64,000 nucleotides of DNA from a virus (IMGVR_UViG_3300050014_000073:19141-83140), one strand, 5' to 3'. Shown: positions 4,281-34,180, counted from the first letter of the stretch. Program-made: numbers and translations. Notes: generated from the letters alone by a model not told the origin.

Positions 4281-5647
4281 GGTTCCTCCGGAACGGCATT
4301 CATTTTCGCATACCGGGCCGTCGCTTCTGCGTCGTATATGCTTCCCTGCTTCAAGTCCGGGACGATCTCACACCCAATTTCCATCCGGGCGTTTTTATGC
4401 GCCGCAACCCATAAGTAAATCGAATCTTCAGTCCAGTCCCCTTTTCCCATCGAGATTCCACAAGCGACTTTCCGCATCTTGCCGATGTCTTCGGCAACAC
4501 GATCCCCGCTCAGGATCTTGAGATTCCGCGTATCACGCTGGGTCTGAGCAGCTACCCAGCCCACCTGGTTGTACCGAGCCATGAACTGCCGCAAGCCTCG
4601 ATAGACATCGTCAGATTCAAACCGCTTCTCGGAATATTTCCGGCTCGGTCGGATTTCCTCATCATAGTCAATGAGCGTCGCATCAGGTATGAATCCCTCA
4701 TCTCGAAATGACCCGACGGCAGATTCAAGAGTTGCAAGAGTAAATCCCCCCTCCGTCCCATCATAGATCTTGATCTTCCCGTGAACTGAGTTCTTGAACT
4801 TCTCAAATCTCTTGGTAAGAGTCTGAGGATAGTCTGCCAGTCCAATCATCGAAATATGCGAGACGATTGCGTCCAGCCGGTCCTCGACAGTTTTTCGTGG
4901 GTCTTCAAGTGTGACGTACAGTACATTGAGCCTCTGCCGTGCGTAGGCGATCGCTAGCCACTCTAAGAACATACTTTTGCCCCGTTTGTACGGGGCCAGG
5001 ACCATGCCCAGCTCCTTAGGTGCTACAAGAGGGACGATCTGGTCGAGAGGTTCAATAAGAGAGTAGGGAACCCGAACATGCTTTCGTTCAGCTAGACGGC
5101 GGGCGATACGGTCATCGAGAGTTGACAGATAGTCAGTAGTCCGGTTCTCGTTCTGGAGAACAAGAACTCCCTTCCTGACGATCTCTGCCCACTTCTCGTC
5201 TGTGAGCTGTCCCGAAGAGTGAAGATCGACTAACTCTTCTATCGCGTTCTTGCGAAGCTGGTTGCTTTTGAACTTGACAACCTTTTCTACTAAGGCATCC
5301 GGAGCTGAGAGCTTGAGTTTCTCTATTGAAGCAACGTACTCGAAAAGTTCGGCTTTCTGCATTGCCCCAAGATCAAGCTGATGGGCATACTCTAAGACGT
5401 CGGACTGCGCCAGTTTCCCGAGAGGTTCGTGATGTTTCTTCCAGAACTCCAACGCTCGTTCCGCTACAATCCAGCGAGCTCGGCCGCGAGGCGCTGCTTT
5501 GTCAGGACGGAAATCTTCGGGTGACAGTAACGTTCCACACTGCTTCAGAGTATGATGATCGAGAACGAGAAGAGCAACCAGACTGTCCTGGAAGTGTGTG
5601 TCGTCCCACCAGCGGCTTGGAGATGGATGTTTGGAGGCTATAGACAT
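4277..5647 (-). CDS. Replicative DNA helicase, DnaB type
   Basis: A 456-aa protein. Residues 1-170 form a DnaB-like helical N-terminal domain (SLVALLVLDHHTL). The C-terminal RecA fold has a variant Walker A at 218-225 (APYKRGKS), a Walker B near 318 (ATLIDYDEE) and an AAQTQR-like sensor strand. The usual GxxxxGK(T/S) is recognisable but starts with APY rather than G. It should unwind DNA ahead of the phage fork, working with the primase at 1205-2095. No good Shine-Dalgarno precedes the ATG. The gene starts 9 bases after the stop of a repeat-encoded mini-gene, so coupling to that gene is possible. Confidence 0.88.
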   Translation of the reverse strand: MSIASKHPSPSRWWDDTHFQDSLVALLVLDHHTLKQCGTLLSPEDFRPDKAAPRGRARWIVAERALEFWKKHHEPLGKLAQSDVLEYAHQLDLGAMQKAELFEYVASIEKLKLSAPDALVEKVVKFKSNQLRKNAIEELVDLHSSGQLTDEKWAEIVRKGVLVLQNENRTTDYLSTLDDRIARRLAERKHVRVPYSLIEPLDQIVPLVAPKELGMVLAPYKRGKSMFLEWLAIAYARQRLNVLYVTLEDPRKTVEDRLDAIVSHISMIGLADYPQTLTKRFEKFKNSVHGKIKIYDGTEGGFTLATLESAVGSFRDEGFIPDATLIDYDEEIRPSRKYSEKRFESDDVYRGLRQFMARYNQVGWVAAQTQRDTRNLKILSGDRVAEDIGKMRKVACGISMGKGDWTEDSIYLWVAAHKNARMEIGCEIVPDLKQGSIYDAEATARYAKMNAVPEEP

Positions 5648-5656
5648 TGAACTAGG

Positions 5657-5832
5657 TTATGACCGCGACTCCGACCCCGACCGCGACCCCGACCCCGACC
5701 GCGGCCTCAACCCCGACTGCGACCACGACCGCGACCCCGACCCCGACCACGACCTCGACCACGACCGCGACCCCGACCCCGACCGTGACCTCAACCCCGA
5801 CTGCGACCACGACCGCGACCCCGACCCCGACC
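5657..5832. repeat. NGGTCG hexamer tandem repeat, copy 1
   Basis: About 176 bp of GACCCC/GACCGC-type hexamers. The G-rich strand is the mRNA-sense strand of the leftward operon, with GG and GGGG tracts every 4-6 bases, so folding into G-quadruplexes is possible. The flank at 5833-5857 is identical to 6846-6870. Confidence 0.85.
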
Positions 5833-5857
5833 ATTTATGAAGTTTGTTCCAACGCAT
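5657..5857 (-). CDS. Repeat-built mini-gene, copy 1 (66 aa, Ser/Arg/Gly/Trp)
   Basis: Starts MRWNKLHKW and then is almost wholly alternating serine with G, R, W or Q, coded by a hexamer repeat NGGTCG. A larger unit of about 27 residues occurs twice. The ATG is one base after the stop of the 189-aa gene and follows CAGGAGAGCGTGAT, a good ribosome site. A second copy with the same first block is at 6604-6870. All frames of the repeat are open, so translation rests on the ribosome site and operon position. I know of no family it belongs to. It may be a small basic nucleic-acid-binding peptide or a repeat expansion with no protein role. Confidence 0.45.
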   Translation of the reverse strand: MRWNKLHKWSGSGSRSWSQSGLRSRSGSGSRSWSRSWSGSGSRSWSQSGLRPRSGSGSRSGSESRS

Positions 5858-5858
5858 A

Positions 5859-6428
5859 TCACGCTCTCCTGAAATTCCTTCTGGGATGAAGTTCCCGAAA
5901 TCGCTGTCGACGAATCTCGTTCTCGAATTGAATCCGTTTCTGAGGTATTGTCTTTAGATAGTTTTTCAGTTCCCTATCCGGATCGAGATCTTCTTTTCCC
6001 GACCAAGCTAGTTTTATACTTGGTAGATTGTAGGACTTCCGGTTCTCACCATTCGGATATGTCTTGATGACGGCTTCTTCGAGACGCTGTCGAGCTGAGG
6101 CGCTTGCAATGAGAGAAGCCGGAAGCCCAAGGTGGAGTTCCTTATCGTTGTTCGGATCGTACTTCCGTCCCTGCTTATAGACAAGAGTCAAGACGTCGAG
6201 AATAAACTCAGGCGTAACGCAGTAGCGCATCGACCATACTTTGAGAGTAAGTAGTAGGAGTTCAGCATTCGGTCCTAGAGGCATCCATACAATGACATCT
6301 TCTGAATAAGGTTTCCGGTTGGTTCGCTGTCTACGAGAGTTCTCGACTTGCAATAAAGCTTTCTCAAGTCGAGACGCCCAGGCAGTGACAGCCTCCCGCA
6401 GTGCATGTTTAAGTTCAAGGTCTACCAT
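5859..6428 (-). CDS. Conserved hypothetical protein, 189 aa
   Basis: Not recognised. It is a soluble, mostly helical, charged protein with a basic C-terminus (RRQRFRELHPRRNFRRA), which could contact nucleic acid. Start MVDLELKHAL overlaps the stop of the 73-aa gene (ATGGTAG). It sits in the replication operon between that gene and repeat mini-gene copy 1, so a role around replication is likely but not shown. Confidence 0.7.
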   Translation of the reverse strand: MVDLELKHALREAVTAWASRLEKALLQVENSRRQRTNRKPYSEDVIVWMPLGPNAELLLLTLKVWSMRYCVTPEFILDVLTLVYKQGRKYDPNNDKELHLGLPASLIASASARQRLEEAVIKTYPNGENRKSYNLPSIKLAWSGKEDLDPDRELKNYLKTIPQKRIQFENEIRRQRFRELHPRRNFRRA

Positions 6429-6643: not shown

Positions 6644-6870
6644 TGTGTTAGATTTTCTATAGCTGCGACCCCGACCCCGACCCCGACTCCCGACCGCGAC
6701 TCCGACCCCGACCGCGACCTCAACCCCGACCACGACCACGACCGCGACCACGACCCCGACCGCGACCTCAACCCCGACCACGACCACGACCGCGACCCCG
6801 ACCACGACCCCGACCACGACCGCGACCCCGACCACGACCCCGACCATTTATGAAGTTTGTTCCAACGCAT
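6604..6870 (-). CDS. Repeat-built mini-gene, copy 2 (88 aa)
   Basis: Starts with the same MRWNKLHKW block as copy 1 and continues with W/G/R-serine repeats. Its ribosome site is GGGAAGTAGGA, 9 bases after the stop of the 87-aa gene. Near the end an extra base (TCGGGAGTCGG) shifts the frame, so the last 28 residues read through into the start of the 73-aa gene. Without that base it would stop at TAG (6661-6663 region), just before that gene, as copy 1 does. Copy 2 therefore looks like a decayed or slipped version of the same cassette. Confidence 0.35.
   Translation of the reverse strand: MRWNKLHKWSGSWSGSRSWSGSWSGSRSWSWSGLRSRSGSWSRSWSWSGLRSRSGSESRSGVGVGVGVAAIENLTQCPKSSKAKKSIL
6660..6847. repeat. 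NGGTCG hexamer tandem repeat, copy 2
   Basis: About 188 bp of the same hexamer family as 5657-5832. The two tracts share the 25-base flank that begins the mini-gene but differ in the order of hexamers, as expected for slippage or unequal exchange. Confidence 0.85.
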
Positions 6871-6878
6871 CGGAAATC

Positions 6879-7142
6879 CTACTTCCCTTCGCCGAAACTT
6901 TCGATAGCTCCACGCTGCACATACCAAGACGTGCCCGGAAGCGGTTGAGCATCTTTGTAGCCCCGTTCGGTAAACGCACCCGTTTCGTAAACGATCTTGG
7001 CGTCGGTTAGCAGAACGCAAGACTCATTCACTCCGGAAAGAGTTCCGGCATAGATGTAGTTCAAGCAGAATAGAAGGACTGACTTTCCAATAAGAGAAAG
7101 CAATCCTTCTTCGTCTTCGGAAACTTCAATAAGCTTTTTCAT
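6879..7142 (-). CDS. Conserved phage hypothetical, 87 aa, possibly Sm-like
   Basis: MKKLIEVSEDEEGLLSLIGK starts the frame. The middle reads GKSVLLFCLNYIYAGTLSGVNESCVLLTDAKIVYETG, a strand-turn-strand pattern like an Sm/LSm barrel in which GTL-GV-ES-VLL marks the Sm1 motif. This resemblance is weak and rests on pattern only. It begins 6 bases after the 111-aa gene ends and precedes mini-gene copy 2. Confidence 0.65.
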   Translation of the reverse strand: MKKLIEVSEDEEGLLSLIGKSVLLFCLNYIYAGTLSGVNESCVLLTDAKIVYETGAFTERGYKDAQPLPGTSWYVQRGAIESFGEGK

Positions 7143-8355: not shown

Positions 8356-8669
8356 GTCTTTACATCGCTTCGCGATACAAGCGGCCTGCTCAACCAAAGC
8401 GAAAATCAAGAAAGTATCCTTTACGAGAAACAAAAGGAAAAAGCTCGTTTTATCGTACATACATCCATTCTCCTGAGTGGTTCTCTTTCCGAGAACGGAT
8501 TCTTCTTGCCCGCGGAAGTCACTGTGAAGTATGCAAAGCATACCGAAGTCCACTTCATCTCCACCACGACACTTATGAAAACCTTGGGCACGAGAAAGAC
8601 GAAGACGTCCGTTTGCTTTGCGTTCCTTGCCACGAGACTTTCCACGGAAGGAAATTCAGAAACGTATAA
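8352..8669 (+). pseudogene. HNH endonuclease reading frame without a start codon
   Basis: The frame opens after TGA at 8349-8351 and runs 105 codons to TAA, with no ATG, GTG, TTG or CTG before the HNH domain. The C-terminal 65 residues are a classic HNH/zinc nuclease: YIHSPEWFSFRERIL, then CEVC, LHLHHDTYENLGHEKDED, LLCVPCHETFHG. The catalytic HH and both CxxC pairs are intact. Either translation starts at a rare codon, an indel in the nearby A runs broke the frame (an upstream frame opens at TTG 8270), or it is a relic. It follows the structured RNA directly, and HNH genes are common mobile passengers in phages. Confidence 0.6.
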
Positions 8670-8678
8670 TTAGCTATC

Positions 8679-9017
8679 ATGATTACCGTAACCGTTTCCG
8701 GTCCTTCCAAGTGCGGAAAAACCGCCGTTGCTGTATTCCTTGCTCGTCAGTTAGACGGTCTAACGAAATCCGTTCAGCTCCGTGACGAGACAAGCAATAC
8801 TCTTACTTTCCAAGCCGTCCTTGACGTTCTCGAAGATGCTGAAGTAACCGTCATTGCAAAAGATGACATAGAGATAAAACTTCCCCATGAACAAGACATC
8901 CTCTTCCCCGACGAGAAGAGCTACACTCCTCCTGTTCCTGAGACGGAGCATCCCGAACCGGAAGAGAATCTGCTCACCGAAGACGAAGCTCTTTCCCGAA
9001 TCCTTACGAACGCCTAG
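8679..9017 (+). CDS. Small P-loop protein, 112 aa
   Basis: MITVTVSGPSKCGKTAVAVF places a Walker A motif (GPSKCGKT) at residues 8-15, directly after the first strand. No clear Walker B or kinase lid is present, and the C-terminal third is acidic and proline-rich (ETEHPEPEENLLTEDEA). It is too short for a full kinase, so it may be a nucleotide-binding regulator or a cut-down NTPase. First gene of the rightward block. GTATAATTAG lies just upstream and may be a -10 element. Confidence 0.7.
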   Translation: MITVTVSGPSKCGKTAVAVFLARQLDGLTKSVQLRDETSNTLTFQAVLDVLEDAEVTVIAKDDIEIKLPHEQDILFPDEKSYTPPVPETEHPEPEENLLTEDEALSRILTNA

Positions 9018-17005: not shown

Positions 17006-17383
17006 GTGTCTCCTCGTAAATCACACAAGCTTCTTAAGGGCCCAGCTCTGTCCGAGATCCTTCGGGTCACAGTTCACCAAGTCAAGTGGTTCGTCGCGGG
17101 CCAGCCTACTCTTTTGATTCCTCCTTCAACGGCGCTTGCTCTTGTGAGAGAGGGCGAGTATGAAGGTAAGGCAAGTGCCCAGCGAGTCTACTACATACGT
17201 GAAATTGACAATTGTCCAAAGCCTGTATGCAATCCTTCGTATTGGGACGACCGTGCTGTCTACCCTGGTGAAACAGATTCGCCTTCACGACATACTGTAG
17301 ACCTCTGGGACCAAATTCTCAAGCGCCGTTCCAGTCGCGTAGCTGTTCAAGTTGTCGCCGCCCACGCGAGCGGCGTGGATTGA
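17006..17383 (+). CDS. Hypothetical protein, 125 aa, 3' end inside a CRISPR-like repeat
   Basis: GTG start; MSPRKSHKLLKGPALSEILR, then a region SEILRVTVHQVKWFVAGQPT that looks like a helix-turn-helix, and VYYIREIDNCPKP. The last ten codons and the TGA stop are supplied by the solitary repeat at 17354-17386, so the repeat may have landed in, and re-ended, this gene. Function unknown; a DNA-binding regulator is possible. Confidence 0.55.
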   Translation: MSPRKSHKLLKGPALSEILRVTVHQVKWFVAGQPTLLIPPSTALALVREGEYEGKASAQRVYYIREIDNCPKPVCNPSYWDDRAVYPGETDSPSRHTVDLWDQILKRRSSRVAVQVVAAHASGVD

Positions 17384-17386
17384 AAT
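17354..17386 (+). CRISPR. Solitary CRISPR-like repeat 1 (type I-C form)
   Basis: A 33-nt unit, GTCGCC...GCGTGGATTGAAAT. Stem CGCCGC (17356-17361) pairs with GCGGCG (17370-17375); the 3' end GTGGATTGAAAT is the handle of type I-C repeats. There is no second repeat within spacer distance and no cas gene. It shares 28 or more of 33 positions with 19751-19783, and the one differing stem pair is C-G here and T-A there, so pairing is kept. Such single repeats in phages can act as RNA anti-CRISPRs that occupy host Cas proteins. Confidence 0.8.
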
Positions 17387-17400
17387 CAGGTATTTGAAGA

Positions 17401-17733
17401 ATGGCTTCTCCTTCTTCCGGTTTCCTCGCAGCGTCGCTTTCATCTGCAGCTCCCGCTATTAGTTCCCGCCTTCGTTCCTCTGTTCGTTCCGCTCTTAACT
17501 CGCATCAGTCATTGAAAGCCGTCCGCGGTCGCGGATCAGAAGTTCAGTCACATCGTTCAGCTCTTGTCTACTTGCGCGAGCTTGAAGCTGAACTTTGTTT
17601 GGTCCAGAACTTGTTGTTGGACGCTTGGAAAGAGTGCGACTACTCGCGGGATTTCCGGAAGTTTATTCGTCATACTGACCAGGCTCAGCAGCGACTTCAT
17701 CAAGCGATCAAGAAGCTTGCCAGGACCGTATAA
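17401..17733 (+). CDS. Hypothetical protein, 110 aa
   Basis: MASPSSGFLAASLSSAAPAI: a low-complexity Ser/Ala N-terminus, then a helical second half (YLRELEAELCLVQNLLLDAW) with coiled-coil character. The start lies 14 bases after solitary repeat 1 and has a weak ribosome site (GAAGA). No family recognised. Confidence 0.55.
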   Translation: MASPSSGFLAASLSSAAPAISSRLRSSVRSALNSHQSLKAVRGRGSEVQSHRSALVYLRELEAELCLVQNLLLDAWKECDYSRDFRKFIRHTDQAQQRLHQAIKKLARTV

Positions 17734-17740
17734 TCAGGTT

Positions 17741-17914
17741 ATGAGAAATTGGAAAGACGATCCAAAGGCAGTTGAGGCAGTTGAGTATCTTCTGGGCATC
17801 GGAATGAATGCGGACGAGTTCCTTCAAGCAGATATAGAAGAGAGCAGTGATTTGGAATCTGATGATGCCGATCCGGAAGTAGAAAGCCGTATTCATGAGG
17901 TTGTTGAGGAATAG
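17741..17914 (+). CDS. Small acidic protein, 57 aa
   Basis: MRNWKDDPKAVEAVEYLLGI, followed by a strongly acidic tail (EESSDLESDDADPEVES). The start follows GTATAATCAGGTT, the same element seen before 8679 and 49748. Acidic mini-proteins of this kind are often DNA mimics or inhibitors of host enzymes, which is speculation here. Confidence 0.6.
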   Translation: MRNWKDDPKAVEAVEYLLGIGMNADEFLQADIEESSDLESDDADPEVESRIHEVVEE

Positions 17915-17915
17915 T

Positions 17916-18179
17916 ATGCCTATCCGTCAATGCAAGAACGGCCACCTGACAGGCTTTCGAAACTGTTCACTATGCGGCAGCAAGCAGACTCGTGATGTAG
18001 CGTGGAAGGCAGTTGCATCTCCTGATGTTGAGGAAGTTGCATCTCCTGCTGCAGAAGTGAAGCCTCTTCACGTTTCGTTCCTCAATCAGTTCCGGGTTTG
18101 GAGAGAGAAGCATCGGAAGGCTGTTCAGCTTCGATTGCGTACTGCACGTTGGGGATTCAAGGTGCACGAGAGGATATGA
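17916..18179 (+). CDS. Small zinc-ribbon-like protein, 87 aa
   Basis: Start at 17916, one base after the previous stop. MPIRQCKNGHLTGFRNCSLC gives a CxxxH...CxxC zinc-binding pattern, followed by a VASPDVEEVASPAAEVK linker and a basic helix (QFRVWREKHRKAVQLRLRTA). Possibly nucleic-acid binding. The stop overlaps the next start (ATGA). Confidence 0.6.
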   Translation: MPIRQCKNGHLTGFRNCSLCGSKQTRDVAWKAVASPDVEEVASPAAEVKPLHVSFLNQFRVWREKHRKAVQLRLRTARWGFKVHERI

Positions 18180-18394
18180 GCAGTGAAAGGCAGAGACAAG
18201 AGGCGAAGAGCCCAGTCGCGAAGGCGGACAGCTTTGGAGCACCGCTATACGACGAGCAATACGACTACTGGCTCCTCAAGTCTTACAGCAATCCCCGAAA
18301 TGGTCTCTGGATCAGAATTGAGCTGGTCCGAGCAATTCGAGACACAGGCCAATCCAGAAAGTCCGATCTTTTTGGAGGGGGTGGAATGAAATGA
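18176..18394 (+). CDS. Hypothetical protein, 72 aa
   Basis: MSSERQRQEAKSPVAKADSF, then QYDYWLLKSYSNPRNGLWIR and a short basic C-terminus. It overlaps both neighbours by 4 bases (ATGA at each end). Not recognised. Confidence 0.6.
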   Translation: MSSERQRQEAKSPVAKADSFGAPLYDEQYDYWLLKSYSNPRNGLWIRIELVRAIRDTGQSRKSDLFGGGGMK

Positions 18395-18654
18395 GCACTC
18401 ACGTTGTTATCATCGACCGTGACAGCTTCACTCCTCGGCATCTGGAAGCACCGAATCAGTTCATCATTGAAGTCAACTCCCAAGGCTTCAACGCATACCA
18501 GACTACGAGCAAAGGCGAGCGTGAACTGATAGCAACTAGTGCCTCCGTTCTCACGTTTGCTGCAGTCATGGCGAGGATTATCCATGACGCAGGCTTTGCT
18601 GAGCAAGTTCACTTCCTGGCCGTGAAGCTGGACCCGATGGAGGTCAAGCCGTGA
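18391..18654 (+). CDS. Hypothetical protein, 87 aa
   Basis: MSTHVVIIDRDSFTPRHLEA; an alpha/beta small domain ending with a helix (LTFAAVMARIIHDAGFAEQV) and a strand HFLAVKL. Coupled by 4-base overlaps to both neighbours. No family recognised. Confidence 0.6.
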   Translation: MSTHVVIIDRDSFTPRHLEAPNQFIIEVNSQGFNAYQTTSKGERELIATSASVLTFAAVMARIIHDAGFAEQVHFLAVKLDPMEVKP

Positions 18655-18926
18655 TCACGATTTGGAAATACCCTCTTCGTGTTCAATGTGAACAGAACAT
18701 TGATATGCCTGAAGGTGCTCAGGTCCTCTGCGTACAGAATCAAGGTCCTGTTCATACACCTCTTCCTTTCCTTTGGGCGAAGGTTAACACTGAGAAGAAA
18801 CTCGTTCCGAAAAAGATCTTGATTCGGGGAACAGGACACCCATTGGAAGGGGACGCGCATTATATAGGAACGTTCCAGATAGATGGAGGAGATCTTGTCT
18901 TCCACGTCTTCGAGAGGTTTCTATGA
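18651..18926 (+). CDS. DUF7352-like phage protein, 91 aa
   Basis: GTG start overlapping the previous stop. WKYPLRVQCEQNIDMPEGAQ, VLCVQNQGP, PFLWAKVN and ILIRGTGHPLEG follow the order of a widespread small phage protein family (KYPL---D-Q-I-MP-GA--L-V, then LW--V, then GTGHP). Its function is unknown; it is usually found among early small genes. Confidence 0.65.
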   Translation: MITIWKYPLRVQCEQNIDMPEGAQVLCVQNQGPVHTPLPFLWAKVNTEKKLVPKKILIRGTGHPLEGDAHYIGTFQIDGGDLVFHVFERFL

Positions 18927-19237
18927 TCATTCGTGCTCTCGATCTTCAAGGAGTTCCAGTCCCGATGAAGGCTATGCGTCTTCATGGTATCTTTTCTTTA
19001 GAGGCACGATCTCATGAACATCTATACGTTGGTCCAATCGAGATCGAATCTGACGAAGAGTATGAACGGGAAGAAAGACAAGCATACGTTCCAATGGGGG
19101 TTTGCATCATGAACTGCCAGCCTCGAAAGAACTATAAGGAAGTTCCTCCCTGCGAGAAGTCAATCTCGTTGAAGGAGTACCTCCTGTGGTTCGGCTTCGT
19201 CGTACTCCTGGCAATCCTCAGTCGGTGGTGGAGTTAA
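18923..19237 (+). CDS. Small membrane protein, 104 aa
   Basis: MIIRALDLQGVPVPMKAMRL; an acidic middle (EIESDEEYEREERQ) and one C-terminal membrane segment (EYLLWFGFVVLLAILSRWW). Probably tail-anchored with the N-terminus in the cytoplasm. Might be a superinfection-exclusion or other host-membrane factor; nothing identifies it further. Confidence 0.6.
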   Translation: MIIRALDLQGVPVPMKAMRLHGIFSLEARSHEHLYVGPIEIESDEEYEREERQAYVPMGVCIMNCQPRKNYKEVPPCEKSISLKEYLLWFGFVVLLAILSRWWS

Positions 19238-19458
19238 TGACTGCAATCCTCGAACGCCTGAACCGCTGGGTCCAAGCTCTTCCCAGCAATGATTCAATAC
19301 CTGTAACGCATCGGGAAGCTGATATCCTGGCAGAAGGCCTCTCAAAGAACTCTTTCTACTTCAAGATGTCAAACGCGAGTTCTGATCCTCACGTCCTCCG
19401 CAACTCCCTCCAGAAGGGAACATTCCGGTTCTGTAATCATAAGGTGTTCGTGCTATGA
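19237..19458 (+). CDS. Hypothetical protein, 73 aa
   Basis: ATG overlaps the previous stop (TAATG). MTAILERLNRWVQALPSNDS, a HREADILAEGL helix, and GTFRFCNHKVFVL at the end. The last codons lie inside a 22-bp sequence that is repeated after the next gene. Confidence 0.55.
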   Translation: MTAILERLNRWVQALPSNDSIPVTHREADILAEGLSKNSFYFKMSNASSDPHVLRNSLQKGTFRFCNHKVFVL

Positions 19459-19459
19459 T
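19438..19459. repeat. 22-bp direct repeat, left copy
   Basis: CATAAGGTGTTCGTGCT followed by ATGAT. It recurs at 19717-19738 with one mismatch. The two copies bracket the 88-aa gene. Confidence 0.8.
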
Positions 19460-19721
19460 GACCCCTCACAATTCAAAAGCAATCCAAGAGATGATCGCAG
19501 TCGGCGTCATTCCCCAAAACTGCCAGAAGTTTGAGATGCTATCCGACGCCGAAGGAGCTGTTCTGTTCAAGTACGAAGTCTTTGCTACCGAGGAACAGGT
19601 TCAGCAGATTGCCGATGCTCTTAAACGGAATCCAGAAGAAGCTCAGCGGATTACCAGAACAGTGTTGTTCGGGGTAAATGACAAGGACAGTTCCCCTACA
19701 GCTAAAGTAGAACTTCCATAA
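19455..19721 (+). CDS. Hypothetical protein, 88 aa, bracketed by direct repeats
   Basis: MMTPHNSKAIQEMIAVGVIP; a TEEQVQQIADALKRNPEEAQ helix. Two adjacent start codons; overlaps the previous stop. The direct repeats at its ends suggest the gene was inserted or duplicated as a unit. Not recognised. Confidence 0.6.
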   Translation: MMTPHNSKAIQEMIAVGVIPQNCQKFEMLSDAEGAVLFKYEVFATEEQVQQIADALKRNPEEAQRITRTVLFGVNDKDSSPTAKVELP

Positions 19722-19738
19722 GGTGTTCGTGCTGTGAT
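19717..19738. repeat. 22-bp direct repeat, right copy
   Basis: Matches 19438-19459 at 21 of 22 positions. It ends 12 bases before solitary CRISPR-like repeat 2. Confidence 0.8.
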
Positions 19739-19750
19739 TGATATCGTTCA

Positions 19751-19783
19751 GTCGCTGCCCGCGCGAGCAGCGTGGATTGAAAC
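19751..19783 (+). CRISPR. Solitary CRISPR-like repeat 2 (type I-C form)
   Basis: A 33-nt unit, GTCGCTG...GCGTGGATTGAAAC. Stem CGCTGC pairs with GCAGCG; the 3' handle is the canonical type I-C end. It lies in a true intergenic space between the small-gene block and the small terminase gene. No neighbouring repeat or cas gene is present. The T-A stem pair compensates for the C-G pair in repeat 1. Confidence 0.85.
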
Positions 19784-19809: not shown

Positions 19810-20166
19810 ATGGCACAAGGAAGTCAGTATCACGTCAACGCCCGGGATAAAGACCGGGTCCAGTGTATGGCAGAGGGCGGAGTTCCAGAGACTCGGATTG
19901 CAGAAATCCTCGACATGGCTCCGAAGACCCTACGCAAGTATTACGGAAAGCTCATCAAGGATTGTTTGGACGAAACCGTAGGCAAGATTGGTCACTCGAT
20001 TGTCCAGAGAGCCTTAGATCTGAACTGCCGTGACGGGGCTTCCTGTGCAATGTTCTATCTCAAGACCCGAGGCAACAAGTACGGATGGTCCGAGAAGATT
20101 GGGTTTGATGACGCAGCTGCTAGCTTGATTAAGCGGGTCATTGGCGTGAAAGACGACGAAATCTGA
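19810..20166 (+). CDS. Terminase small subunit
   Basis: A 118-aa protein. The start is put at 19810 (MAQGSQYHVNARDKDRVQ); an upstream in-frame GTG or ATT would translate the CRISPR-like repeat. An N-terminal helix-turn-helix (VPETRIAEILDMAPKTLRKY, about 28-47) would bind the packaging site, followed by a helical oligomerisation region. Position two genes before the large subunit supports the call. There is no clear ribosome site. Confidence 0.75.
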   Translation: MAQGSQYHVNARDKDRVQCMAEGGVPETRIAEILDMAPKTLRKYYGKLIKDCLDETVGKIGHSIVQRALDLNCRDGASCAMFYLKTRGNKYGWSEKIGFDDAAASLIKRVIGVKDDEI

Positions 20167-20580: not shown

Positions 20581-22119
20581 GTGGCTGCTCTCGCTCAACC
20601 TCCGATCAAGAAGCAAAAGTGGATACCGAGGAAGGAATTTCTCAAGCAGATCCACGACCCTGCTTTTCAAGCACCTAAGGTTCAGTACATCGACTACGAA
20701 CCGAGGGGCAACGTCAAGGAGATGTTCCGTCATAAGGAACGTGAGATTATCCTTGCAGGTCCGGCTGGAACAGGTAAGAGCCGAGGGGCTCTTGAGAAGC
20801 TTCATTGGATTTGTGAGAAGTATCCTCGCGCTCGCTGCCTCATGCTGCGCAAGACTCGTCGCAGTTTGACGCAGTCGGGTATTATTACGTATGAGCAGCG
20901 TGTTCTTCCCGCTCCCAACTACGTTCCGTTCCACGGTGGCGAACAAGCCTACATCTATCCGAACGGGAGCATCCTAGCAGTAGGAGGCCTTGACGATCCG
21001 AACAAGCTGTTCTCTTCGGATTGGGATGTCATCTTCGTCCAACAGACTGAGGAGTTGAACTTAGGGGAATGGGAGAGCTTGCTCCGGTCTCTTCGTTCAT
21101 GGAAGGTTCCATATCAGCAGGTCATTGGTGACTGTAACCCTGGGCCTCCTACCCATTGGATTCTGTCCCGCAAGTCAGCGGGGTCCTGTACCTTTTTAGA
21201 GACGCGTCATGAAGACAATCCGGAACTGTGGAACGGCTACTGCCCGATGCACGGGAAGATCGAACCGGAGTGGACCTGTCGAGGACGCGAATACATCTCG
21301 GTGCTTGACGCCTATACAGGAGTCCGGTTCCTTCGTCTCCGCAAAGGGATCTGGGCAGCTGCTGAAGGGATTGTCTATGAAGACGTCTGGGATGTAGCGG
21401 TTCACGTCATTGATCGCTTTGTCACAACTCCTTTAGATAAGGACCAGGTTCCTAAGAGCTGGCCACGCTATTGGGGCGTTGACTTTGGCTATACGAACCC
21501 CTTCGTCTGGAGCGCCTTTGCGGAAGACCCTGACGGACGTCTGTTCCGGTACAAAGAGATCTACCGGACGAAGACTCTTGTTGAGGACCATGCCAAGCGG
21601 ATTCTAGAAGTGACGCAGGACGAACCTAAGCCTCAGTGGATTGTCTGCGATACGGATGCTGAAGACCGCGCTACTTTAGAGAAGCATCTTGGGATGAAGA
21701 CAGTCGGAGCTTGGAAGTCCGTCAGTCCTGGAATCCAGGCGGTCTCAACGCGCCTCAAGATTGCCGGCGACGGGAAGCCTCGGTTGTTCTATCTTAAGAA
21801 CTCTGTCGTGGACGTTGATCCTTTGCTCCTGGCGGAACATAAGCCAACTTGCACTGAAGAAGAGTACCCAGTATATGTTTGGGACACATCGAACAACCGG
21901 AAGCGCGGTGAAGAGCCTGTAAAGGAATTTGACCACGGGCAAGACTTGAGCCGGTACGTCATAACTAAAAAAGATGACACTTCCGGCAAGAAGCCGAAGT
22001 TCTTTGCGATTGGTTCCGTGACGAAGACGGGTGGTTCAGGAGAAGGTGGCAGCTTGGCTCGTCCTTCGCCTTGGAGAATGGGTGGAGGAATCGGATTGGG
22101 AACGCGGTGGGGACAGTGA
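20581..22119 (+). CDS. Terminase large subunit
   Basis: A 512-aa protein, GTG start. The ATPase domain has Walker A GPAGTGKS (about 61-68) and a Walker B strand WDVIFVQQTEEL (about 150-161). The nuclease domain has DFGYTNP (about 300) and VCDTDAEDRATLEKH (about 357), the acidic residues of the RNase H fold. It pumps DNA into proheads and cuts it. Its length and order are normal for the family, and the C-terminal 40 residues are Gly-rich. It is 4 bases downstream of the HNH gene. Confidence 0.95.
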   Translation: MAALAQPPIKKQKWIPRKEFLKQIHDPAFQAPKVQYIDYEPRGNVKEMFRHKEREIILAGPAGTGKSRGALEKLHWICEKYPRARCLMLRKTRRSLTQSGIITYEQRVLPAPNYVPFHGGEQAYIYPNGSILAVGGLDDPNKLFSSDWDVIFVQQTEELNLGEWESLLRSLRSWKVPYQQVIGDCNPGPPTHWILSRKSAGSCTFLETRHEDNPELWNGYCPMHGKIEPEWTCRGREYISVLDAYTGVRFLRLRKGIWAAAEGIVYEDVWDVAVHVIDRFVTTPLDKDQVPKSWPRYWGVDFGYTNPFVWSAFAEDPDGRLFRYKEIYRTKTLVEDHAKRILEVTQDEPKPQWIVCDTDAEDRATLEKHLGMKTVGAWKSVSPGIQAVSTRLKIAGDGKPRLFYLKNSVVDVDPLLLAEHKPTCTEEEYPVYVWDTSNNRKRGEEPVKEFDHGQDLSRYVITKKDDTSGKKPKFFAIGSVTKTGGSGEGGSLARPSPWRMGGGIGLGTRWGQ

Positions 22120-34080: not shown

Positions 34081-34107
34081 TAAAACTGAGTGCTACGGGT
34101 CGCTAGG
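34081..34107 (+). repeat. Intergenic repeat, type A
   Basis: Contains GCTACGGGTCGCTAGG. This 27-base block is the reverse complement of 55106-55132. Confidence 0.75.
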
Positions 34108-34156
34108 GCAGCTTGCAAGGGTCTAACTAGTATATTTCATAGGGTAGCCGGTCAGA

Positions 34157-34180
34157 GACCGTCCTAGGGTCGCTAAACAC
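34157..34180 (+). repeat. Intergenic repeat, type B
   Basis: 24 bases matching 14153-14176 with one mismatch; core GGGTCGCTA. It ends 12 bases before the next start codon. The 139-base gap thus holds one A and one B copy. Confidence 0.75.

What the first reader, a model, noticed from the sequence alone, without database searches (positions are those of the whole stretch)
17354..19783. Two solitary type I-C CRISPR repeats in a phage: candidate RNA anti-CRISPRs
Units at 17354-17386 and 19751-19783 each have the full 33-nt form of a type I-C repeat: GTCGC start, 6-bp stem, GTGGATTGAAA(C/T) end. Neither has a second repeat at spacer distance, and no cas gene is in the window. They differ at one stem base pair (C-G versus T-A), a compensatory change, so the hairpin is under selection. 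Phage single repeat units that mimic crRNA and trap Cas proteins (Racr) are established. Two in one genome, at the ends of a small-gene block, would be a strong example. Basis for the I-C class is resemblance to known repeats recalled, not searched.
Basis: partly seen in the sequence, partly recalled or inferred. Interest (0 to 1): 0.92.

Follow-up and report, generated by a model that had tools for sequence, protein, structure and literature searches.

The report
Phage copies of host CRISPR repeats
A phage, probably of soil or water Acidobacteriota, carries two lone copies of a bacterial immune-system (CRISPR type I-C) repeat and, outside the window, a tiny CRISPR array of the same repeat; these are most likely RNA decoys that jam the host's immunity, a strategy already demonstrated in other phages.

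Summary
In detail: 33-nt units at 17354-17386 and 19751-19783 (+), none expected by chance. The same repeat, differing at 1 base (SRU2) or 3 bases (SRU1), forms arrays in Acidobacteriota MAGs, beside complete I-C cas operons in two of them. The window is part of an 83,140-bp virus record holding exactly four copies. The two unseen copies, 28 kb upstream, form a mini-array: two repeats around a 34-nt spacer with no match found. No cas gene was found. All four copies carry a phage-specific A16 that shortens the host's 8-bp hairpin to 6 bp, while the handle that host Cas5c binds stays intact apart from its naturally variable last base. Solitary I-C-like units occur in 54 further IMG/VR contigs. 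RNA anti-CRISPRs (including I-C) and viruses carrying both mini-arrays and stand-alone repeats are published. So this is a new member of a known kind, with an unusual four-unit set. Best explanation: co-transcribed crRNA decoys processed by host Cas5c, plus one real phage crRNA. The compensatory change is real but modest evidence: both end states also occur in host repeats, and SRU1 overlaps a probable gene end.

The parts
17354..17386 (+). SRU1, solitary 33-nt I-C repeat GTCGCCGCCCACGCGAGCGGCGTGGATTGAAAT; identical to repeat 1 of the phage mini-array (record 8655-8687, -)
   Evidence: 90.9% identical to the array repeat of L014
19751..19783 (+). SRU2, solitary 33-nt I-C repeat GTCGCTGCCCGCGCGAGCAGCGTGGATTGAAAC; one base from the array repeats of L006 and L008
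   Evidence: 97.0% identity
17356..17375 (+). predicted 6-bp stem of SRU1 (pairs 3-22 to 8-17) with C9/A16 mismatch and loop
19753..19772 (+). predicted 6-bp stem of SRU2, T6-A19 in place of C6-G19, same C9/A16 mismatch
17376..17386 (+). 11-nt stretch that would become the 5' handle bound by Cas5c (TGGATTGAAAT)
   Evidence: sequence; handle role from established I-C biology and PMC7684278
19773..19783 (+). 11-nt stretch that would become the 5' handle bound by Cas5c (TGGATTGAAAC)
   Evidence: sequence; as above
17006..17383 (+). probable ORF (125 aa, no family match) whose last nine codons and TGA stop lie inside SRU1
   Evidence: codon score 0.105 against -0.10 and -0.24 in the other forward frames
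17401..19721 (+). block of short, mostly unassigned genes between the two units (only 18651-18926 has a family, DUF7352 / phrog_3848); no known acr or defence gene recognised
19810..20166 (+). 118-aa ORF just after SRU2; small terminase subunit proposed from position only
   Evidence: structure model low confidence
20581..22119 (+). terminase large subunit, marks the packaging module that follows SRU2

Best explanation
The two units are candidate RNA anti-CRISPRs (Racr) against a type I-C system of an Acidobacteriota host. They lie on the coding strand inside a run of phage genes, so they would be transcribed within phage messenger RNA. Host Cas5c would bind the hairpin and its 3' flank and cut there. 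This leaves phage RNA that starts with the 5' handle UGGAUUGAAAY, followed by phage sequence instead of a guide. Cas5c with Cas7 on a handle starts I-C Cascade assembly, so these RNAs would tie up Cas5c, Cas7 and perhaps Cas8c in complexes with useless guides. The bases next to each would-be protospacer in phage DNA are repeat sequence (AAT or AAC) instead of the TTC motif, so the phage would not be cut. The mini-array outside the window would supply one genuine phage crRNA with a 34-nt guide against an unknown target. Shown: sequence, I-C class, solitary state, mini-array, no detectable cas genes, intact handle. Inferred: transcription, processing, sequestration and inhibition.
For: Near-identical repeats occur in four genomes of one Acidobacteriota family; in two of them the repeat sits beside cas3-cas5c-cas8c-cas7c-cas4-cas1c. 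Within 2 mismatches the repeat is found in 3 of 81 genomes in each of two draws from that family, against 1 of 396 across the phylum. All 10 inner handle bases are unchanged in all four copies and no difference among copies breaks the 6-bp stem. The four copies show C-G, T.G and T-A states at pair 6-19. In 43 distinct solitary viral I-C-like units the inner stem pairs 3.65 of 4 against 2.82 shuffled (maximum of 2000 shuffles 3.09), so such units keep the hairpin in general. Precedent: RacrIC1, a solitary I-C unit in a prophage, restores infection under I-C targeting (PMC10651486). Cas5c-Cas7 on the 5' handle nucleates I-C Cascade (PMC7684278).
Against: No expression data. RNAfold gives the canonical hairpin only 0.01-0.18 probability in the phage units because of A16. 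Promoter-like sites near the units are no more frequent than in shuffles. No known acr gene nearby. The true host is not established: no array spacer held here matches the phage, and no array with A16 was found. SRU1 overlaps a probable gene end.
Confidence: 0.6

Rival explanations
1. The solitary units are relics. Array repeats entered the phage by recombination with a host array (or with the phage's own mini-array), were copied, and now have no function of their own.
For: SRU1 is identical to mini-array repeat 1 and SRU2 is one base from repeat 2, so the two units look like a second, split copy of the same pair. The same 5 bases CAGGT follow SRU1 and repeat 1, though flanks otherwise do not align above chance. 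A16 weakens the hairpin in all copies.
Against: Ten inner handle bases and all six outer pairs are intact in all four copies, with a two-sided change at one pair. Solitary units in other viruses also keep the stem.
Confidence: 0.17
2. The units are processing sites. Host Cas5c cuts the phage transcript before the gene at 17401 and before the gene at 19810, setting the 5' ends or stability of the small-gene block and the packaging transcript.
For: Each unit ends 14-26 nt before an ORF start on the same strand. The mini-array also lies between two co-directed genes (clamp-loader-like and SbcCD-like). Cas5c cutting is specific to the repeat.
Against: It would make phage gene expression depend on a host defence that many hosts lack. 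The three terminase relatives found carry no such unit, though they are only 45-51% identical in TerL.
Confidence: 0.12
3. The units act as guide or insertion sites: solitary repeats whose downstream phage sequence acts as a guide, or landing sites for new spacers made by host Cas1-Cas2-Cas4, giving rise to mini-arrays like the one on this record.
For: The phage has a mini-array with host-like spacer length (34 nt; L008 spacers 33-35 nt). Stand-alone repeats and mini-arrays occur together in SPV1 and SPV2 (PMC6858448).
Against: No host leader sequence precedes the mini-array or SRU2; a weak SRU1-L006 leader similarity (p about 0.01, one of 28 comparisons) is not convincing. The two mini-array repeats differ at three positions, unlike a fresh acquisition. 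No target for the spacer was found, and the downstream stretches had only short chance matches in the loci held.
Confidence: 0.08

Closest known systems
RNA anti-CRISPRs (Racr), solitary repeat units; RacrIC1 of a Bifidobacterium pseudocatenulatum prophage (PMC10651486)
   Same: Solitary I-C repeat in a phage genome, on the strand of and directly beside a gene; at least 90% identical to a host repeat; no other repeat within 100 bp
   Different: Two solitary units plus a mini-array in one record; no recognised acr neighbour; shared A16 weakens the host hairpin; SRU1 overlaps a gene end; activity untested
RacrIF1 (PMC10651486)
   Same: Repeat mimicry as decoy for Cas proteins
   Different: I-F: Cas6f cuts and the product lacks a 5' handle, leaving a Cas6f/Cas7f filament. 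In I-C the unit itself supplies the handle to the RNA downstream, so a handle-bearing decoy is expected (inference)
Virus-borne mini-CRISPR arrays with stand-alone repeats, SPV1 and SPV2 (PMC6858448)
   Same: Same virus carries a mini-array and stand-alone host-type repeats, no cas genes needed
   Different: Archaeal; leader present and spacers match related viruses there; here no host leader was found and the spacer has no match
Other viral I-C units: L016, L082/G431, L015
   Same: I-C units in IMG/VR viruses; L015 and L016 carry the exact L014 repeat; G431 also has four units
   Different: In G431 and L016 each unit is copied with a shared upstream element; in this phage the four units share no upstream sequence

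Membership tests
Racr / solitary repeat unit | at least 90% identity over at least 90% of a CRISPR repeat of known subtype | tested here: met
   SRU2 97.0% to L006/L008, SRU1 90.9% to L014; subtype from adjacent I-C cas operons in L006 and L014
Racr / solitary repeat unit | no other full or partial repeat within 100 bp | tested here: met
Racr / solitary repeat unit | lies in an intergenic region | tested here: inconclusive
   SRU2 lies between ORFs 19455-19721 and 19810-20166; SRU1 overlaps the last 30 nt of a probable ORF
Racr / solitary repeat unit | repeat-like RNA hairpin | tested here: inconclusive
   6-bp outer stem possible in all copies, but canonical fold disfavoured by RNAfold
Racr / solitary repeat unit | host carries a CRISPR system of the same subtype | tested here: inconclusive
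   I-C systems with near-identical repeats exist in one Acidobacteriota family, but the host link is by repeat only; no spacer match
Racr / solitary repeat unit | expressed small RNA that inhibits CRISPR interference | not testable with these tools
   needs RNA sequencing and interference assays
Virus-borne CRISPR mini-array | host-type repeats around only one or two spacers, no cas genes | tested here: met
   record 8588-8687 (-), one 34-nt spacer, outside the window
Virus-borne CRISPR mini-array | spacer matches a related virus | tested here: inconclusive
   no match in phage records, no exact 20-mer nor three reading-frame patterns in IMG/VR, none in 61 family genomes
Ordinary CRISPR array end | array continues next to the unit | tested here: not met
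   no repeat within kilobases of either unit

The most novel reading that the evidence does not exclude
The A16 change shared by all four phage copies is an adaptation: it loosens the hairpin so that the units bind Cas5c but are cut slowly or assemble into dead complexes, and a phage-borne mini-array and decoys are used together, one to block the host's own crRNAs and one to load the phage's chosen guide.
Probability: 0.12. Interest if true: 0.7.

Novelty: new member of a known kind. Interest (0 to 1): 0.42.

Why it matters
It adds a clear I-C case to the catalogue of RNA anti-CRISPRs, in a bacterial group with little phage biology, and one phage with both decoy units and a mini-array. I-C differs from the well-studied I-F case because the processing enzyme Cas5c stays on the 5' handle, so it is a good system for asking how an I-C RNA decoy works and whether a shared hairpin change (A16) tunes it.

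Tried and rejected
Ends of a normal array: rejected, no neighbouring repeats. A cas locus on the phage: none found by tblastn. Shared promoter or leader with the units: none among the four copies, and no convincing match to host leaders. Spacer target: phage records, IMG/VR by exact 20-mer and by three reading frames, Acidobacteriota family genomes, own genome, all negative. Host spacers against the phage: only short chance matches. Conserved position in relatives: only three distant TerL relatives found, none with a unit. Structure prediction of two neighbouring proteins: confidence too low to use. PADLOC, Pfam and PHROGs on the small genes: no anti-CRISPR or defence lead apart from an HNH gene.

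Full report
Observation. The two 33-nt units are exactly where stated, on the + strand, and are not chance. The window is bases 19141-83140 of an 83,140-bp virus record. The record holds two more copies, outside the window, at 8655-8687 and 8588-8620 on the minus strand, 67 bp start to start, around a 34-nt spacer. Nothing else in the record comes within nine mismatches of the repeat consensus. The mini-array lies between a clamp-loader-like gene and an SbcCD-like gene, all on the minus strand (gene names read from the translations).

Class. A search of 85,462 species genomes with a relaxed form of the repeat gave nine contigs, four of them Acidobacteriota. The repeat of L006 and L008 differs from SRU2 at one base; that of L014 differs from SRU1 at three. 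L014 (Candidatus Sulfopaludibacter) and L006 (a Terriglobia MAG) carry cas3, cas5c, cas8c, cas7c, cas4 and cas1c of type I-C beside the repeats. The four Acidobacteriota genomes appear to fall in one family, since family searches centred on three of them return overlapping sets that include the others; NCBI places Sulfopaludibacter in Solibacteraceae. Within that family the repeat is present, at up to two mismatches, in 3 of 81 genomes in each of two draws, against 1 of 396 in a draw over the phylum (each draw includes the genome it was centred on). This points to an Acidobacteriota host but rests on the repeat alone. The same repeat form also occurs in Hydrogenedentota, Sumerlaeota and Cohnella, and no spacer held here matches the phage.

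Structure. Host repeats form an 8-bp hairpin with pair probability 0.97-0.99. All four phage copies have A at position 16, opposite C9, and keep six outer pairs; RNAfold then prefers other folds (canonical probability 0.01-0.18). None of the host repeats found has A16, although the search pattern allowed it. Between the copies, pair 6-19 is C-G (SRU1, repeat 1), T.G (repeat 2) or T-A (SRU2). All other differences are in the loop or at the naturally variable last base. Four random substitutions would keep the stem and handle and include a compensated pair in 0.5% of trials, or 1.8% if only transitions are drawn. This favours selection on the stem, but both end states exist in host arrays, so it is not strong proof.

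Setting. SRU1 ends 14 nt before an ORF at 17401 and overlaps the last nine codons and stop of a probable ORF at 17006-17383. SRU2 ends 26 nt before the ORF at 19810, which precedes an HNH gene and the terminase large subunit. The genes between the units are short and mostly without family; no known anti-CRISPR or defence gene was recognised. No promoter-like signal stands out above shuffles, so transcription from within a longer phage transcript is the natural assumption.

Population. The pattern GTCGC-N16-GTGGATTGAAAY occurs in 71 IMG/VR contigs, solitary in 54. Across 43 distinct solitary units the inner stem is paired far more often than when halves are shuffled. Of 33 such records searched whole, 30 have one unit, two have two, and one (G431) has four. 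So solitary I-C units are common in viruses, and four units in one record is rare but not unique.

Mechanism. Racr activity of a solitary I-C unit is published (RacrIC1, PMC10651486). In I-C the processing enzyme is Cas5c, and the Cas5c-Cas7 clamp on the 5' handle starts Cascade assembly (PMC7684278). A solitary unit in a transcript would therefore give RNA that begins with a proper handle followed by phage sequence, a decoy crRNA. This differs from RacrIF1, whose product lacks a 5' handle. The step from sequence to decoy is inference. The mini-array matches the definition of virus-borne mini-arrays (PMC6858448, PMC11656645), where the same virus may also carry stand-alone repeats; its spacer has no known target.

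Verdict. A confirmed, well-classed I-C repeat set in a phage: a new member of a known kind. The added facts are the mini-array on the same genome, the matching I-C operons in Acidobacteriota, and the shared A16.

Noticed in passing
L082 / G431 (IMGVR_UViG_3300047539_000079), record 16114, 24637, 30587, 30703 (-): Four I-C-like units in one virus, each preceded by the same or nearly the same 60-nt sequence (TTCCAGGTACGTCTAGGCCTTGCGGCCC...), as if a promoter-plus-unit cassette had been copied to several places. A strong Racr candidate set.
   Followed up: partly
L016 2683-2781 (-): Tandem duplication of a 66-nt cassette: hairpin GGCCAGCTTGTTTAGCTGGCC followed by a unit identical to the L014 host repeat, or differing from it only at the last base. 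It looks like a mini-array but the 'spacer' is the repeated upstream element.
   Followed up: partly
L015 1775-1803 and 2294-2326 (+): Two different I-C-like units (29 and 33 nt) about 490 bp apart in one viral contig.
   Followed up: no
window 14157, 22560, 34092-34174 (+), 47632, 47784, 55106 (-); L005 718, 8477-8559, 11782, 18440 (-): Recurrent phage intergenic element (GCTACGGGTCGCTAGGAC ... AGCGACGGTCCTAGGGTCGCTAAA, complete or in part, some copies approximate), perhaps a phage promoter or operator; one copy sits 28 nt after the mini-array.
   Followed up: partly
L005 9971-11695 (-): RecA-like protein that appears to be interrupted by an intein-like insert with an HNH-type motif (read by eye from the translation, not tested).
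   Followed up: no
window 5628-5905 and 6653-6918: Two stretches of 12-nt-periodic repeats similar to each other (family D1).
   Followed up: no
window 19438-19459 and 19717-19738: The 22-nt gene-start sequence CATAAGGTGTTCGTGCTATGAT is repeated just before SRU2, where a GTG-start short frame runs through the unit.
   Followed up: no
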